Part shown: positions 18,088-27,039 of the stretch, one piece after another
Layout of the letters: every line of letters begins with the position of its first letter
Position numbering within the stretch: the stretch's first letter is position 1
Source: Blepharisma japonicum
Taxonomy: Eukaryota; Ciliophora; Heterotrichea; Heterotrichida; Blepharismidae
Direction of reading: 5' to 3'
Assembly: GCA_949751835.1 (NCBI GenBank)
Contig: CATKHK010000010.1
Span: 310,001-374,000 of the forward strand
DNA: 64,000 nucleotides
Notes under the pieces: model-generated
What the model was told of the DNA's origin: nothing
Seen by the model: the letters and a program-made list of their open reading frames with translations, nothing else
Database searches by the model: none
Program-made: the position numbers and the translations under genes

Positions 18088-18426
18088 CTATTTAAATCCT
18101 TTTCTGAAAATAGCTTCTCGATATTCCTGACATGAAGCACAAGGGCCACAGAAGCAATGAGTACAGCAGTCCCCAACAAATCCTCCTTCTATTTTGAATA
18201 TTCCTCTAAGATTTCCACGGTTGATTGCAGCTCCAATGCATCCCAAGCAGCATGCGAGTAGGCATGGGACCATACAACCTTGAGCGTTATCAGAAGCTTT
18301 TTCAATTGCTTTCCCTTGCATGCATTGAGCTCCGCAAGGTATACAGCATCCCCATAAGCAGACCATGCAGTCCTTTGTGCATCCTAAGAGTGATTCGGTG
18401 AAATGTGGTTCACTTCCACTTGCCAT
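18088..18426 (-). CDS. PLAC8-family Cys-rich protein, copy 1
   Basis: A 112-residue protein from the ATG at 18426 to TAG at 18088-18090. The pattern of Cys clusters (GCTKDCMVCLWGCCIPCGAQCMQG, split here as GCTKD, CCIPCGAQC, CFCGPCASCQEYRE) is that of the PLAC8/DUF614 family, found in plant FCR/PCR membrane proteins and animal PLAC8. Two hydrophobic Cys-rich segments (about 20-35 and 55-70) suggest membrane association. Roles in this family range from cell-size control to metal transport; none can be assigned here. It forms a same-strand tandem pair with the next gene, which has identical length. Confidence 0.88.
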   Translation of the reverse strand: MASGSEPHFTESLLGCTKDCMVCLWGCCIPCGAQCMQGKAIEKASDNAQGCMVPCLLACCLGCIGAAINRGNLRGIFKIEGGFVGDCCTHCFCGPCASCQEYREAIFRKGFK

Positions 18427-18722
18427 TTTAACTTTTATTAAGGTTGCCAAACGTTTCTCTTCTTTTGATGGACAAATAGGTTATTTATTTAAATTTTTGA
18501 ACTATGAATAATTTTTTCAAAATAAAAACAATAAGTTATTATACCAGAAATAAAATTTTTTATTAAAAAAATAGACTGAATTTTCCTTATTTTTATGATT
18601 TTAATGCTGCCTTTTTTATATATGGAAATTATTAAGAAAGAATTTCATTTCACAAGAAATAGTTTTCTTTGGTTTTTATTGAGCTTTTTAGAAAGGACTT
18701 ATTATATTTAAGTGAATGTTAG

Positions 18723-19061
18723 TTAACTTCTTTTAGTTTGATTCCTCCATTGTACTTCACGGTACATTTGGCATGAAACACAAGGCAGACAGAACCAGCT
18801 AATCAGGCAATCTACAATAAAGTTTCCATCAATCCTGTAACGATTGCGAATATTTCCACGGTTAATTGCTGAACCAATGCAACCTAAAAATGTTGCTAGG
18901 AGGCATGGGACGAAACAGCTTTCTGATCCTGCACTTGCGTCGTTGATTGCCATTCCTTGGACACACTGTGAGCCGCATGGAACACACCAGGAGATTAAGC
19001 AGCTTTTCATGTCTTTTGTGCACCCACACAAAGGCTCTTCAAAGGTATTTTCTTGCGCCAT
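18723..19061 (-). CDS. PLAC8-family Cys-rich protein, copy 2
   Basis: A 112-residue paralogue of the gene at 18088, with ATG at 19061 and TAA at 18723-18725. It keeps the GCTKD start of the domain, the CVPCGSQCVQG block, GCIGSAINRGNIRNRYRI (nearly identical to its neighbour) and the terminal CLPCVSCQMYREV. Several cysteines differ between the copies, so they have had time to diverge. It lies about 300 nt upstream of copy 1 on the same strand. Confidence 0.88.
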   Translation of the reverse strand: MAQENTFEEPLCGCTKDMKSCLISWCVPCGSQCVQGMAINDASAGSESCFVPCLLATFLGCIGSAINRGNIRNRYRIDGNFIVDCLISWFCLPCVSCQMYREVQWRNQTKRS

Positions 19062-20167
19062 CAAATTTTTATTAGAGTTTATTGGATATGAGTTGATAAG
19101 AAAATATGTCACAAGCTTTATATTATCTAAATATTTAATTCAAAAAAGATAAATAGAGATCTGCAATTTGTTGTTTATAAAATTGAAGTGAGTAAGCTAA
19201 ATAATAAATAGAATTTATAAGGAAAAATTTTTTAAACTTTTTACAAAAATTTTTTCTCAGAGGAAGATCTTAATAAGGCTCTGTGCTTATTAGCAAATTA
19301 GCTTTATTATGAGTTTCTGGTATTCATAAAATTTTACTCTGAAATACTGACCCTTTTATTTCCATTAATTTATGCTTAACTGTTTATAATACTAAATGGC
19401 TTAGTGGCAATATAATTCATGAATATAGAGTCAAGTATGACACCTTGGTTAAAGAAATTCACTTATCTAATAATCAATAAATTTAATATCAAGCGCAGGG
19501 TTGCTATTGATCTACTTTATTTTATTGTATTTCCTAGGTGTTGGGCTAAGGATTAAATTCAGTAGAAGCAGTTTACCTATATAACTGATTAATATATAAG
19601 AATTGAAGATAAAGGGCTGAATAAAAAGATGCTAGCACATCCCTCTAAATTCTTTGAAGTCTATCATGTTCATACATCTCTATAAAATAGGGCATTCAGC
19701 TTTATAGCGATTAGATAGAGACAGTAGCATCTGAGTGGTTTAAAATAAATATACCAACTATTTTCATTTTACTCAATTCTGGACAAAGGCAAGAATTAAA
19801 GCTATTAGCCAAATTTTAGACCCAGTTAAGGAATGCACTCAGAAATTACTTTAGGCGATTTAAAATTATGCATAAATAATTATAATAAATTTAAAAGCAT
19901 TTTTTTATATGAAACATTTAAAAATTAGATGAGAATTTACCAATTCTATTTTTATTTGTTCAATATTTGCAATCTATAGATAAACAACTTAACATTGAAC
20001 TATTTAAAATTAAAATATTTGATAGAATTTTTGAAAATGAAAAATAAAAATTATATCCTCATTAGAGAATGCAGAACACACACAAATAATCATCCTGAAA
20101 TTCAATTTCAAGATTAAAATAAGTCATCTAATAGGCCATTTTAATTAATTTTAAATTTAGTTCAGCA
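19062..20167. other. Intergenic region, nothing recognised
   Basis: About 1.1 kb between the PLAC8 pair and the amidotransferase pair, whose promoters diverge here. A stretch around 19500-19850 is somewhat less AT-rich and was read on both strands. No long open frame, tRNA or snRNA could be supported. Confidence 0.5.
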
Positions 20168-21403
20168 ATGTCATCTTACAGAATTCTCGCATATTCAAAA
20201 ACTGCTGGCACTTTCAAATGTTTTCTTGATGGAAACCTCATTCCTGCATTTACTGTGCAAGAATCAGATATAAATCGTTATTTTTCGGTGGTTAGAATCT
20301 TGTCAGCTTCACTTGAGCCGGCCAAGTATTCATCTCTTAACTGGGATCATATGGGTTACTTAGAAAACGAAAAGTTATGCTTTAATTTACTGAAATTAAT
20401 ATACAGCCTTTGAAGCCTGAATAAAATTGCAAAAAATAAAAAATGAGCTTAAGAGAATGAAAGTCTCTATTAATTCTGACACATATTAAGGAGCTGAATG
20501 AAGCATATAGGTTATCATTCTTTTACTATTGAAAACACTATTTATGTCCCACTACCAAATATCGAATTAAACGGTGATATCCCACAAAGATTTTTGGATC
20601 ATGAAATCATGCTAGAAAGGTACAACCTAGCAGTTTCTAACAATTTCCTAGACAAAGACTTCAGCTTTAGAACTGCTTCTTATAGCCCAGTTGCATTTCA
20701 TGAAAACCCAGATTTTTTGCTATTTCACATGCAAGACTATTTGCCATGGCCTGGGATCAGTGAGTGCTTATATGGTGGATTTTTTATTAAAGGAACAGAA
20801 AAATGAAACCATTACTTCGTCCCACAAAACAACTTGCCGCCACTAGGAAATCTCTCTAATCTTAAAGGAATTTTAATAACAGGCGCAAAATACTGTTCAT
20901 ATGATACAACTTTACCTTGGATTGATTCTCTGCTGGATCTTCTAAGAAGCATCCATGAACATTACCCACACGTAAAATTCATAGGAATTTGCCTTGGCCA
21001 CCAAATCCTTGCCAGAGCATTTGGGGGAGAAACTGGAAGAAATCCTTCAGATAGATTCATATACCATCTTGAAGAGTTTTCTGCACTAGAAGAATTCGAA
21101 GGACTTCCAAACAAGTTAAAAGTATCTGAATCACATGGTGATTGCGTGTTAGAAATTTCTCCAGAGTCTAGGATAATTTACACATCTCCATCCACTCGTG
21201 CAGAAATGCTAAGATATGGGAACTGGGGAGTCTCTGTGCAAGGACACCCTGAGTTTACTTCAATGTTCATAAAGAATTTCCATTCAAAATTCTGCCACTC
21301 TAGATATGATGATATACAAGAAGTTTTGAATACTTATACATACGAAAGGACTGACTCCGACTTGATTATTGAAGCTTTTAACAGATTTATAAGAAAAAAA
21401 TAA
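20168..21403 (+). CDS. Class I glutamine amidotransferase-like protein, copy 1 (interrupted)
   Basis: A 374-residue protein if the 111-bp insert at 20375-20485 is removed; with it, the frame meets TAA in the insert. The C-terminal GATase domain has the nucleophile Cys in GICLGHQILARAFGG and the His-Glu pair in VQGHPEFT. GATase1 members of this layout include plant gamma-glutamyl peptidases and GMP-synthase-like hydrolases. The N-terminal 170 residues, shared with the neighbouring copy, are not recognised. The Trp in GTEKWNHY is TGA. Across the insert the paralogue aligns exactly (copy 2 HDNQLRKLIKQ, copy 1 ENEKL then RSWMKH). The gene is either a pseudogene, processed by DNA excision, or present in a mixed state. 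Confidence 0.8.
20375..20485. other. 111-bp TTA-flanked insert, IES-like
   Basis: A 111-bp AT-rich segment inside the first amidotransferase gene. It begins with TTA at 20375-20377, and the same TTA recurs at 20486-20488 directly before the coding sequence resumes, so the insert is bounded by a TA-containing direct repeat. It carries in-frame TAA stops. Removing one repeat and the insert restores a gap-free alignment to the intact paralogue. Its length is far from the 15/16-nt introns of this genome. TA-bounded excised segments (IESs) are the known germline-limited elements of ciliates including Blepharisma. Whether it is excised is inference. Confidence 0.65.
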
Positions 21404-21448
21404 CTTAGAGTCACTTATAAGCTTTTTATATATAAATTTACTTGATTA

Positions 21449-22591
21449 ATGGCTTCTTTTAAAGTTATTGCATATGGAAAAGAAGGTGAAGCTTTTACTT
21501 GTCTTTTAAATGAAGATAAGAGTGTCCCGGAATATACTTCCAAAGATTCAGACGTGAACAGATATTTCGCAGCTGCAAGAGTAATATCAACAAGGCTAGG
21601 ATTTAGGCTTTTTACAGACACTGAATGGGAAAATCTTGTATTTTACCATGATAACCAGCTGAGAAAATTGATAAAGCAGGTAGTTGTGCACGGATTTACT
21701 GTAGGAAATGTCATTTATGTGCCAATTCCAGAAACAAATTTTGCTGATAATGTTCCTGGAAATTACATTGATTCTCCTTTGATGTCTGAAAGGTTCCACT
21801 TGGCTACCATTTACAACTACATGAGTCCTTGCTATATATTTGATGAAGCTAAATTTGAATCATCCCAAATCCATGAAAATCCAGAATATTTGTTACTACA
21901 AATGCAAGACTATTTGCCATGGTCGGGACTAAACGAAGCATTATATGGAGGCTTTTTCATCAAGGGCACAGAAAAATGAAATCATTACTATATCCCAAGA
22001 AATGATTTTCCTAGTGTCGATAAGTTAGGCTCATTAAAAGGAATTATGATTACAGGAGCAAAATATAGTGCTTTTGATGATTCTTTGCCTTGGCTAGAGC
22101 CTTTAATAGGATTCTTCAGAAATATCATTGACAATTTTCCAAGTGTCAAAATTGTGGGAATATGTCTTGGCCATCAAATTTTAGGGAGGGTCTTTGGAGG
22201 AGAAGCTGCAAGAAATCCTGATGGAGGCTTTGTTTACAAAACTGAAGAACTTACAGCATTAGAAGAATTTGAAGGCCTCCCAAGCAAACTTTACTTGTCT
22301 GAGTGTCATGGAGATTGTGTATCCGTAGTGCCTCCAAGTGGAAAAATCATTTATTCTTCACCAAGTTGTGCTACTGAAATTGTAAGATACGGTGATAGAG
22401 CAATTACATCTCAAGGCCACCCAGAGTTCACCACTCACTTCGTAGTGCATTTTTACACACAGTATATGCTTTCCAAAGGAGGAATATCTGACGAGCAAGC
22501 AAAAACTGCTTTAGAACTCTGCTCGAGGATAAAAACTGACTCAGAAATCCTCATTGATGCATTTAACAGGTTTTTAAGAAAAAATAATTAA
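21449..22591 (+). CDS. Class I glutamine amidotransferase-like protein, copy 2
   Basis: A 380-residue intact paralogue of the preceding gene, 45 nt downstream on the same strand. The GATase fold occupies about residues 195-345, with C239 in GICLGHQ, H324 and E326 in SQGHPEF, a complete Cys-His-Glu triad. The N-terminal part (VNRYFAAARVISTRLGFRLF) is shared only with copy 1 among genes seen here. One TGA=Trp at 21977-21979 lies in GTEKWNHYY. Likely a soluble cytosolic hydrolase acting on a glutamine or gamma-glutamyl substrate; the substrate cannot be told from sequence. Confidence 0.85.
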
Positions 22592-22603
22592 AAATCTTAT
22601 ATA

Positions 22604-23449: not shown

Positions 23450-23949
23450 CTGACTTATTTAATTCAATTTTTAATTAATTAAGCTTAGGCTAAGACGAGC
23501 TATTTAATATATATATATCCTTATTTAATAAATGAATTAAGAAAAAATTTAATGCAACTTATGGCCTGTTGAATTTAAATAAGTTATATTTAAACTAACA
23601 TATTTAGCGTCCTTATTCTTAAAATCAATAGTCCTTATGCAATAATTTTTTATAGATCACTATTTTTGGAGATAAATAGTTTTGTAAAATATTTTAATCA
23701 TAATTATAGGTCATCTATATAGTTTCTAGAATCTAAAAATAATCCATATAATTAGCCTTCCTGACAATATAGTTTTATATCACTGCACTTATCATTAAAT
23801 AAAGAATTGAACTGAATCATCATAGTAGAAAGAAGAGAAATCACAAATATATTGATATTATGTAAAAGTCAAATAGGATCAGAAAGATATAAAAAAATAA
23901 AGACTAAAAAATAAGTAAAGAGGCATATAAGACCTGCTTAAAATAAAAA
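23450..23949. other. Intergenic, AT-rich, nothing recognised
   Basis: About 500 nt with runs of TA around 23507 and no supported gene. It includes the promoter of the repeat protein that follows. Confidence 0.55.
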
Positions 23950-26900
23950 ATGTCTAGTATTCTTGAAAGCCTGAACTCTTATAGGCATGAGATGCTAAAG
24001 CACCGACAAAAAAATAATAATTTGATATCCAGCTCTAAAGGATCACTTTTCTATAAAAGTCCTAGAGTTTTGACCAATAAAAGAAAAAGCAATTGGTCTC
24101 CTGTTATAAAAGACAACAACGCCTGAAGATCTAAATTGGGCATTGTTCTCTCTTTAAGCAAAAATGAAAGGAGATATGAAGAAAGTCCAAATAAAATTAA
24201 ATTCTCAGTGGATTCTGAAGGACTTAATAGCCACAGAAGTTCGAGGTCTCTTGGTATCTGAAGATTCTGCTCACCAAAAAAAAGAATAAAAACTTATAAA
24301 GTTGATTCAGCAAAATTGCTATATGATAGAGTCATAGCTTATCTAGAAAAGCATTTCAAGAGTGGTAAGTCCAATAGCCCTCTAGAACTTTATAAGCTCC
24401 CTCTCAGAACCGATACCTATTTATCTAAAAAACAAAGGCTTGAAAATATAAAAATAAATTTAGAAAAAAAATTCCAAGAGCGTGAAGAAAAGCTGAAAGC
24501 AAAACAATCCAATGAAGATAAAACACTATTTTTTACCCCACAAAGTTATAGCGAAATAGAACTTAGTCATAGTCCTGGAGAATTAAATGAAATAATTGAT
24601 ATTCAGCTTTCGGCTGAAAATAAAGCAAGGCTAAACGAAACCTTTAATTCGAATATTTTAACCCCAAGAGAATATGAATCTACTCAGCTTGAAGATGTAT
24701 TTTTAGACAAATTATCTTCTGATAGCATGAGCCTTGCTCCTCCATCATCTTACTCAAGCCGATTTGATAAAGAGAAAAATTTTGATAGTGGCCGTATGGT
24801 TCCAATTTCATATGAAAAATTAATTGGGATTGAAATAATCTGTAGATATTGCTTCAAAGTTATAATCCAAGCTTTTGATGGTTTCAAAAACTCTTACAGC
24901 CCAGAGCCAGACGATGATTTTTTTGAATATTTCATTTTTGATAAGCCACTGCTAGATTATGATTATTTAGAAGAACCTGATTATTATGATGAAGAAACAA
25001 ATATTGAGGTTACTACCATTCGTAAATCAGATCTGCATGAGCCTCTTACAAGTCAAGCTATTAATGAGCTTTGTGAAGTTTATGTATCATACGAAGATAA
25101 CTGTTGTGAACAAAATGATGAAATATTTGAATATAGGGATATTAAAAAAACGCTATCAAGCTATAATTGCTTAGAAGAGTCCAATGAAATAAATAAAGAA
25201 ATTGAATATTCAATTATAGATAAGCCAGAGTCAGACTATAATTATTTAGAAGAGTCAAATGATATAAATAAAGAACATGAATACTCAAATTTAAAGAAGC
25301 CAAGATCAGATTATGAATACTTAGAGGAATATGATACTAATCGGATAGAAATTGACAACTCGAAGACTTCTTATCAGAGTACGATAACACACTCTATCAT
25401 AAATTCTCCACCAGCTGATTATAACTATTTGTTGTTAAAGCCCAACACGATGTACATATTATATGATCATAAGAAAACTCTAGATTACCATCTCACTAAT
25501 AAACCAATTGCAGACTTTAACTATTTGGAAGAAGATTCTTCATTATATATAAGTAAAAGCAATCCTATATATCAACTCACCAATAAACCAATTGCAGACT
25601 TTAACTATTTGGAGGAAGATACTTCATTATATATAAGCAAAAGCAATCCTATATATCAACTCAACACAAAGCCAATCGCAGACTACAACTACTTGGAGGA
25701 AGATTCTTCTTTATATATTAGTAAAAATAATCCTACATATCATCTTAACACAAAGCCAATCGCAGACTACAGCTATTTGGAGGAAGATTCTTCTTTATAT
25801 ATTAGTAAAAGTAATCCTACATATCATCTTAACACAAAGCCAATTGCAGACTACAACTATTTGGAGGAAGATTCTTCTTTATATATTAGTAAAAGAAATC
25901 CTGTATACCATCTGGCCAATAAATCAATTGCAGACTACAACTATTTGGAGGAAGATTCTTCATTATATATAAGTAAAAGCAATCCTGTATACCATCTGAC
26001 CAATAAATCAATAGCAGATTACAACTATTTGGAGGAAGATTCTTCATTATATATCAGGAAACATAATCCTGTATACCATCTGACCAATAAATCAATAGCA
26101 GATTACAACTATTTGAAAGATTACTCGTCATTTGAATATATTTTATCCAAAGTGTTCAATAAATCATCATTTCGTTACAATAGTCTCAAAGCAAAATATT
26201 GAACTAAATTATCAAGTCGCAGAGTTATTTCATATTTTGTACTTAATAAGCCCCAGCCTTACTTTAATTTACTGAAAGATGATGTATCTTATCAGCAAAT
26301 CTTATCTCAAGCTATAAATAAACTGAATTCTCATTATAATTTCATCAAGAAAAAGTATTGAAACCAATGACTATGCTCTTATGTTTTTACTTTGTCTAGC
26401 TTGTCTAGTGGAGATGAATTTGCAGACATTTCTATGCACAAAGAAACAATTGCAAAGGCAATTAATAATTTCAATGCTTATTATGCTTTTCTAAATGTGA
26501 AGTATTGGGATAAATGGGTTCTTTATATGAGGATTTCAATACTTAAAGAAAATTCCATCAGGAAAATTGCGAGGTCAATAAGTAAATCACAAGGGAAATT
26601 GAAGTTTTCTTTTTTCCTTAAACTTTTATCATATATAGAAAAAAGAAAGTATGCTCTTTGTGTATTTAAAACACTCTTTCACAAGAGAGAAAAACAAATC
26701 ATTGATTTTTGGTATCAAATTTCTTCTAAAACTCCAATTGTAAATAATGAACACCTATTTATTGAAGAACTCAATATGAGCACATCCCATATTGATAGCG
26801 ATGCAGTTGAAAAGTTTTATAAGCCTCTGGAGTTTCTTTACAAATCAAAGCTTCGGGCTGGGTTTTCGTCTCTTTTGTCTCTTCTCATTAAGACCCAAAA

Positions 26901-27039
26901 ACCTCCTGTCAACTTATCAAATATCTCTGTCTACAAGTATCGAATGATCAAAGAAAAAATTGAAAAATTTTTGGCATGTCTAGAGACAAAAGTGTTGAAA
27001 ACTTCAAATATATACTTCCAAAAGTGGAAAAGCCTTTAA
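23950..27039 (+). CDS. Tandem-repeat protein with 28-residue units
   Basis: A 1029-residue protein, ATG at 23950, TAA at 27037-27039, no intron, several TGA=Trp. A central array (residues about 518-713) has seven 28-residue units of the form KPIADYNYLEEDSSLYISKSNPIYHLTN. Degenerate D-Y-x-Y-L-E-E units precede it from about residue 335. After it, related units become Trp-containing (YNSLKAKYWTKL, YNFIKKKYWNQW, YAFLNVKYWDKW). The Trp-containing blocks resemble the hydrophobic repeats of centrin-binding Sfi1-like proteins, which heterotrichs use in contractile fibres; this is an inference from pattern only. The N-terminus is Ser/Lys-rich. No enzyme domain is visible. Confidence 0.8.
25501..26088 (+). 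repeat. 84-bp tandem repeat, seven units, coding
   Basis: Unit starts at 25501, 25585, 25669, 25753, 25837, 25921 and 26005, with a partial eighth at 26089. Each unit encodes 28 residues of the host protein in frame. Neighbouring units differ by few bases, so expansion is recent compared with the more degenerate flanking units. Confidence 0.92.

What the first reader, a model, noticed from the sequence alone, without database searches (positions are those of the whole stretch)
20375..20488. 111-bp TTA-bounded insert interrupts one of two amidotransferase paralogues
Directly seen: copy 1 matches copy 2 up to a TTA codon, then 111 bp of AT-rich sequence with stop codons follow, then another TTA and an exact, gap-free continuation. 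The insert is not a normal intron, because every other intron here is 15-16 nt. A TA-containing direct repeat at both ends is the mark of ciliate internal eliminated sequences. Inference: this is an IES retained in part or all of the somatic copies, or a variant where excision failed. As other genes in the window lack such inserts, this is probably a locus of incomplete or optional DNA elimination, a possible switch for the gene.
Basis: partly seen in the sequence, partly recalled or inferred. Interest (0 to 1): 0.78.

Follow-up and report, generated by a model that had tools for sequence, protein, structure and literature searches.

The report
Unexcised germline DNA interrupting ciliate gene
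A 111-base piece of non-coding DNA that looks like the germline segments this kind of ciliate normally cuts out when it builds its working nucleus still sits inside one gene of the assembled genome and breaks its reading frame.

Summary
In a genome with Blepharisma's features (TGA=Trp, CCCTAACA telomeres, 15-nt introns), one of two neighbouring amidotransferase-like genes carries a 111-bp insert (20375-20485) with two in-frame TAA stops and a TTA at each end. Of 1,195 frame-restoring excision products scored against paralogues, the exact TTA-to-TTA removal ranks first under two profile models; 15 of the 1,195 involve a TA-containing repeat of at least 3 bp. No 14-18-nt GT-AG intron fits, and the best long GT-AG intron scores worse. 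Length, TA-containing repeat, unique sequence and intragenic place match the short IESs described for Blepharisma stoltei (PMC9942856: about 40,000 IESs, a length peak near 110 bp). Comparable inserts were not seen elsewhere in the parts of the genome I could examine. Best reading: an ordinary short IES left in the assembled somatic copies. Against it: the repeat alone is weak evidence, there is no terminal inverted repeat, and no reads, RNA or germline sequence were available. Nothing tested speaks for a regulated switch. An IES retained in a MAC reference has a precedent (Paramecium mtA), so this is a new member of a known kind, of modest interest.

The parts
20168..20374 (+). Upstream coding part of amidotransferase-like copy 1 (69 codons from ATG)
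   Evidence: Open frame with TGA=Trp; aligns to copy 2 at 29% identity with codon-position identities 0.54/0.64/0.38 and to five further paralogues
20375..20485 (.). The 111-bp insert, counted with the left TTA; IES-like
   Evidence: codon log-odds negative in six frames; one match only in the genome for a 181-base query holding it
20375..20377 (.). Left TTA of the direct repeat
20486..20488 (.). Right TTA of the direct repeat
20450..20452 (+). First in-frame TAA inside the insert; reading from the ATG ends here after 94 codons
   Evidence: Translation; ORF end
20471..20473 (+). Second in-frame TAA inside the insert
   Evidence: Translation; next ORF starts at 20474
20486..21403 (+). Downstream coding part of copy 1, with the whole matched GATase domain, to its stop
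   Evidence: Pfam PF00117 E = 3.9e-15; codon-position identities to copy 2 0.62/0.74/0.43
20498..20500 (+). First ATG in the downstream frame after the insert (start of a possible 301-residue protein in the split-gene rival)
   Evidence: Counted from the translation
20376..20483 (.). Alternative TAT-bounded 108-bp excision
   Evidence: Rank 21 of 1,195 with the copy-2 profile
20374..20490 (+). Best GT-AG intron alternative (117 bp, GTT...AAG), disfavoured
   Evidence: 397.0 bits against 406.6 for the TTA excision; 321.6 against 328.4 with six paralogues
21449..22591 (+). Copy 2, uninterrupted amidotransferase-like paralogue used as yardstick
   Evidence: Pfam PF00117 E = 1.9e-12

Best explanation
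The insert is a short, TA-bound internal eliminated sequence (IES) of a Blepharisma-like heterotrich that was not removed from the somatic chromosome copies that went into this assembly. In the germline the gene would carry the insert between two TTA triplets; during macronuclear development a PiggyMac-type excisase would normally cut at both TA-containing ends and the ends would be joined so that one TTA stays, which gives an uninterrupted amidotransferase-like protein. At this locus the cut failed in most of the copies sampled, or the unexcised form spread among the copies by assortment in the polyploid macronucleus. As assembled, the gene yields only a 94-residue fragment. Shown: the insert, its exact ends, the fit of the excised product, the lack of a fitting tiny intron, the rarity of such inserts where I looked. 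Inferred: that it is germline DNA, that the excisase acts on it, and that the copies that carry it are somatic.
For: TTA-to-TTA removal ranks 1 of 1,195 frame-restoring products under a profile of copy 2 (406.6 bits) and under one of six paralogues (328.4 bits). Both coding parts keep codon-structured similarity to copy 2 (0.61/0.72/0.42 at codon positions 1, 2, 3 over 374 codons), so the gene was under constraint as a whole. Genome features: in-frame TGA at a conserved Trp in both copies; CCCTAACA telomere repeats, 77 + 91 matches against 0 in the control; 15-nt introns with GTA...TAG, 11 of 11; PiggyBac-type (DDE_Tnp_1_7) genes present, 12 matches, three of them full length without TAA or TAG. 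Published B. stoltei IESs: 39,799 on a 41-Mbp somatic genome, three quarters TA-bound, about 70% intragenic, short ones largely unique, periodic lengths from about 65 to 115 bp with the most abundant peaks at 72 and 110 bp (PMC9942856, text read). Insert 111 bp, single match in the genome.
Against: The TTA repeat has a chance of roughly 1 to 3%, and TAA/TTA is named in the paper as the mark of the roughly 389-bp class, while short IESs mostly have TA, TAT or TATA. No terminal inverted repeat: 6 of 12 matches, reached in 76% of shuffles. Blepharisma IES retention in MAC-enriched DNA was reported as 0.02 or less (passage), so retention in most copies is unusual. No reads, RNA or germline sequence here, and species identity is inferred, not looked up.
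Confidence: 0.6

Rival explanations
1. The insert is a germline IES, but the assembled sequence took it from germline (MIC) or rare unexcised reads; in the somatic nucleus the gene is intact in most copies.
For: Assemblies of mixed nuclei can hold germline sequence; PMC9942856 notes MIC contamination as a common reading of retained IESs (section 17). The gene looks constrained on both sides of the insert.
Against: Where I could look the assembly is not germline-like: of 124 kinesin matches none has a TAA or TAG in a match longer than 1,053 bp and the 2 split ones lie in open frames, although about one IES per kb would be expected in germline DNA if the B. stoltei density (39,799 per 41 Mbp) applies. 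An assembler normally follows the majority of reads.
Confidence: 0.14
2. Recent insertion of a small sequence that is not eliminated at all: copy 1 is becoming a pseudogene.
For: The frame is broken as assembled; a paralogue next door could cover the function.
Against: Apart from the insert neither part has a stop or frameshift; exact frame-true ends at a TA-containing repeat and an IES-like length would be coincidence.
Confidence: 0.12
3. Split gene: the insert serves as a short spacer with start signals, and the downstream part is expressed on its own from the ATG at 20498 as a 301-residue protein with the GATase domain.
For: The matched GATase domain lies wholly downstream; spacers between genes here are tiny: 45 bp between copies 1 and 2 and 12 bp after copy 2 (read), and 45 bp lie between the first TAA and this ATG.
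Against: The upstream 69 codons align to all six paralogues and show codon-structured similarity, so they belong to the same protein; none of the six paralogues starts downstream of this point.
Confidence: 0.07
4. An unusually long intron removed from RNA (GT at 20374, AG at 20490, 117 bp).
For: GT and AG lie just outside the repeat, and removal restores the frame.
Against: The product scores 397.0 against 406.6 bits (copy-2 profile) and 321.6 against 328.4 (six paralogues) and drops two conserved-spacing residues; ends are GTT...AAG whereas the 15-nt introns found have GTA...TAG in 11 of 11; B. stoltei introns are reported as predominantly 15 and 16 bp (PMC9942806).
Confidence: 0.07

Closest known systems
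Short periodic TA-bound IESs of Blepharisma stoltei (PMC9942856; parts 1 and 2 of the text, sections 17 and 23 and passages read)
   Same: Length 111 bp beside the 110-bp peak, TA-containing terminal direct repeat, within a coding sequence, unique sequence, AT-rich
   Different: Still present in the assembled genome; TTA repeat is not one of the commonest for short IESs; no inverted repeat seen; excision and germline status not shown
mtA IES of Paramecium tetraurelia (PMC4177680, passages only)
   Different: mtA retention is tied to mating type E and to maternal scnRNA inheritance; nothing of the kind is shown here. This insert lies inside the coding sequence and has two stops
Incompletely excised IESs of Paramecium and their assortment in the macronucleus (PMC8467633, abstract and outline; PMC6771405 and PMC8670300 seen only in a reference list)
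   Same: Partial retention of IESs in somatic copies, stable in vegetative growth
   Different: There measured by read counts; here only an assembled sequence

Membership tests
Internal eliminated sequence (Blepharisma type) | Present in the germline genome | not testable with these tools
   No germline reads or assembly at hand
Internal eliminated sequence (Blepharisma type) | Precisely absent from at least part of the somatic copies | tested here: inconclusive
   Two DNA searches of the genome found no insert-free second copy, but an assembly shows one form only
Internal eliminated sequence (Blepharisma type) | Terminal direct repeat that contains TA (three quarters of B. stoltei IESs) | tested here: met
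   TTA/TTA; chance about 1.3% among frame-restoring products
Internal eliminated sequence (Blepharisma type) | Excision restores the coding frame when intragenic | tested here: met
   Rank 1 of 1,195 products under two profiles
Internal eliminated sequence (Blepharisma type) | Length in the published periodic range with a peak at 110 bp | tested here: met
   111 bp against the text of PMC9942856; one length cannot show periodicity, and I did not see the width of the peak
Internal eliminated sequence (Blepharisma type) | Terminal inverted repeats, common but heterogeneous | tested here: not met
   6 of 12 matching bases, reached in 76% of shuffles; the paper names no inverted repeat that all B. 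stoltei IESs share, so this is not a defining feature
Spliceosomal intron of this genome | 15-16 nt with GT...AG ends | tested here: not met
   No GT...AG of 14-18 nt at 20341-20500; 15-nt introns are GTA...TAG in 11 of 11
BogoMITE / Bogo element of B. stoltei | About 389 bp with a poly-C terminal inverted repeat | tested here: not met
   111 bp; 18 bases of the published repeat have 0 exact matches in this genome

The most novel reading that the evidence does not exclude
Excision of this IES is optional and inherited across sexual generations, so that retention switches one of two amidotransferase paralogues off (or to a shorter protein from the ATG at 20498), as the mtA segment does for mating type in Paramecium; it would be the first such case in a heterotrich that I know of (recalled; no search aimed at that claim was made).
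Probability: 0.06. Interest if true: 0.75.

Novelty: new member of a known kind. Interest (0 to 1): 0.33.

Why it matters
If it is a retained IES, the assembled reference gene model is wrong or broken here, and the case points to a blind spot: IES catalogues made by mapping germline reads to the somatic reference (the method described in PMC9942856, section 23) list only what the reference lacks, so an IES retained in most somatic copies is not listed. Frame-restoring, TA-bounded inserts found through paralogues are a way to list such cases and to ask whether retention is random, fixed by assortment, or inherited.

Tried and rejected
A scan of the 264-kb stretch for frame-restoring repeat-bounded inserts by codon statistics alone gave 24,642 and 19,096 raw candidate pairs on the two strands, far too many to be of use; dropped. 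Two self-comparisons by separate HSPs missed the insert because BLAST bridged it; the gap-based version found it. The longest kinase matches with stops (C106, C44) looked like further inserts but hold only 15-nt introns. My first profile used copy 2 alone because the other paralogues lay on the minus strand of their loci; repeated with all six. No copy of the insert in the 264 kb beyond chance (best other hit 16 bp, E = 0.021). No fold of the insert beyond shuffles (z = 0.44). No Rfam family at gathering score in the window. Structure prediction was not used: the paralogues come from the genome search, which the tool does not list as an allowed source, and the window alone gives too thin an alignment. 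The reference collections of prokaryotes, phages and plasmids were not searched, as they hold no ciliates. Species identity was not pinned down: 45.2 Mb in 224 contigs does not match the published 41 Mbp and 64 sequences of B. stoltei.

Full report
What was checked. TTA stands at 20375-20377 and 20486-20488, 111 bp apart, and the repeat is exactly three bases. Reading on from copy 1 with TGA as tryptophan meets TAA at 20450 and 20471, and the insert is non-coding by codon statistics in six frames. BLAST of copy 2 against copy 1 opens a gap of 37 residues at just this place, with E = 1.7e-116.

Which genome. The window lies on contig 10 (680,194 bases) of an unnamed 45.2-Mb genome in 224 contigs. 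In-frame TGA at a shared position in both copies, telomere repeats of CCCTAACA (77 and 91 matches on the two strands, 0 in the control), and 15-nt introns fit Blepharisma as described in PMC9942806: UGA as tryptophan, CCCTAACA telomeres, introns of 15 and 16 bp. Size and contig number differ from the published B. stoltei assembly (41 Mbp, 64 sequences), so the strain or species is open. PiggyBac-type genes, the family of the presumed excisase, are present: 12 matches, three full length without TAA or TAG. An 18-base piece of the BogoMITE end has no exact match, as expected of a somatic assembly of B. stoltei, but this says little if the species is another one.

What excision would restore. I built all in-frame, stop-free products from deleting a stretch that starts within 45 bp before to 60 bp after the left TTA and ends within 60 bp before to 45 bp after the right TTA: 1,195 distinct proteins. 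Scored by a profile of copy 2 and by a profile of copy 2 and five further paralogues, the exact TTA-to-TTA deletion is first both times (406.6 and 328.4 bits; the runners-up have 405.2 and 326.5). The margins are small, since neighbouring deletions differ by one or two residues. Only 15 of 1,195 products come from a TA-containing repeat of 3 bp or more and 30 from one of 2 bp or more, so the coincidence has a chance of about 1 to 3%. A TAT-bounded 108-bp deletion ranks 21st. All six paralogues run on without an insert at this place.

Intron? No GT...AG of 14 to 18 nt lies in 20341-20500, which has GT at three places only. The best longer GT-AG deletion (20374-20490, 117 bp) loses two residues and scores 9.6 and 6.8 bits lower. 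The 15-nt introns recovered in 264 kb start with GTA and end with TAG in 11 of 11 cases, unlike GTT...AAG here. The same scan gave 6 candidates of 16 nt, less uniform, some of which may be chance.

Is the gene otherwise sound? Over 374 aligned codons copy 1 and copy 2 agree at 0.61, 0.72 and 0.42 of first, second and third positions, with the same pattern on both sides of the insert. The matched GATase domain lies wholly downstream (PF00117, E = 3.9e-15). The nearest NCBIfam models are glutamine amidotransferases, all under their curated cut-offs, so the exact enzyme is not named.

Are there more such inserts? In 264 kb around the window, 668 ORFs of 80 or more residues were compared with the same DNA: 513 non-self HSPs at E up to 1e-4, 71,867 query residues, not independent of each other. 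Of 22 gaps of ten or more residues in the query, 5 have stops in the inserted part; the other four lie in hits of 30-40% identity with E from 3e-10 to 5e-6 and unclear flanks. Genome-wide, 134 of 1,185 kinase candidates were scored, which favours intact copies; 10 rows have TAA or TAG, 4 of these were read, and in all 4 the stops lie in 15-nt introns. For kinesins 122 of 165 candidates were scored with 124 matches; 18 have TAA or TAG, the longest of these 1,053 bp against 981 bp for the whole profile, and the 2 split ones lie in single open frames. If the B. stoltei density of about one IES per kb (39,799 per 41 Mbp) applies, about a hundred would be expected in the germline DNA of these kinesin domains. 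The assembly thus looks somatic, and this insert is an exception.

How it compares. PMC9942856 describes B. stoltei IESs as mostly TA-bound, about 70% intragenic, the short ones largely unique, with a periodic range of about 65-115 bp and its most abundant peaks at 72 and 110 bp. The insert fits in length, repeat, place and uniqueness. It does not show an inverted repeat, and TTA is not among the repeats that the paper calls most common for short IESs. The paper gives residual retention in MAC-enriched DNA as 0.02 or less and calls excision a continuum. [quoted passage not shown] In Paramecium, retention levels are reported to be set at macronuclear development and to stay fairly stable later (PMC8467633, abstract).

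Verdict. Most likely an ordinary short IES left in the assembled somatic copies (0.60). Assembly from germline or rare reads (0.14), a fixed recent insertion (0.12), a split gene (0.07) and a long intron (0.07) remain. A regulated switch is not excluded but rests on nothing tested here.

Noticed in passing
window 21404-21448 and 22592-22603: Spacers between neighbouring same-strand genes are tiny: 45 bp between copies 1 and 2, and 12 bp from the stop of copy 2 to the next ATG (read).
   Followed up: no
window 19197-20134: Nearly 1 kb without an ORF of 80 residues or more just upstream of copy 1, unusual among such short spacers here; may hold further non-coding or retained DNA.
   Followed up: no
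window 18091-18480 and 18726-19196, minus strand: Two neighbouring PLAC8-family genes (E = 4.4e-17 and 5.5e-18).
   Followed up: partly
window 23947-27036: Open frame of 1,030 codons without a Pfam family whose second half, as far as read, holds a degenerate repeat of roughly 40 codons (seen from about 25,380 on).
   Followed up: no
G000:C214:4909-5954 and C112:107992-108915 (loci L041, L043, L044, L046, L047): PiggyBac-type transposase matches with many TAA and TAG codons, that is decayed copies, beside three full-length open ones on C6 and C86.
   Followed up: no
G000:C63:56090-57307 and C17:198222-199496: Two kinesins with an open, stop-free insertion of about 150 bp near profile position 97.
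   Followed up: no
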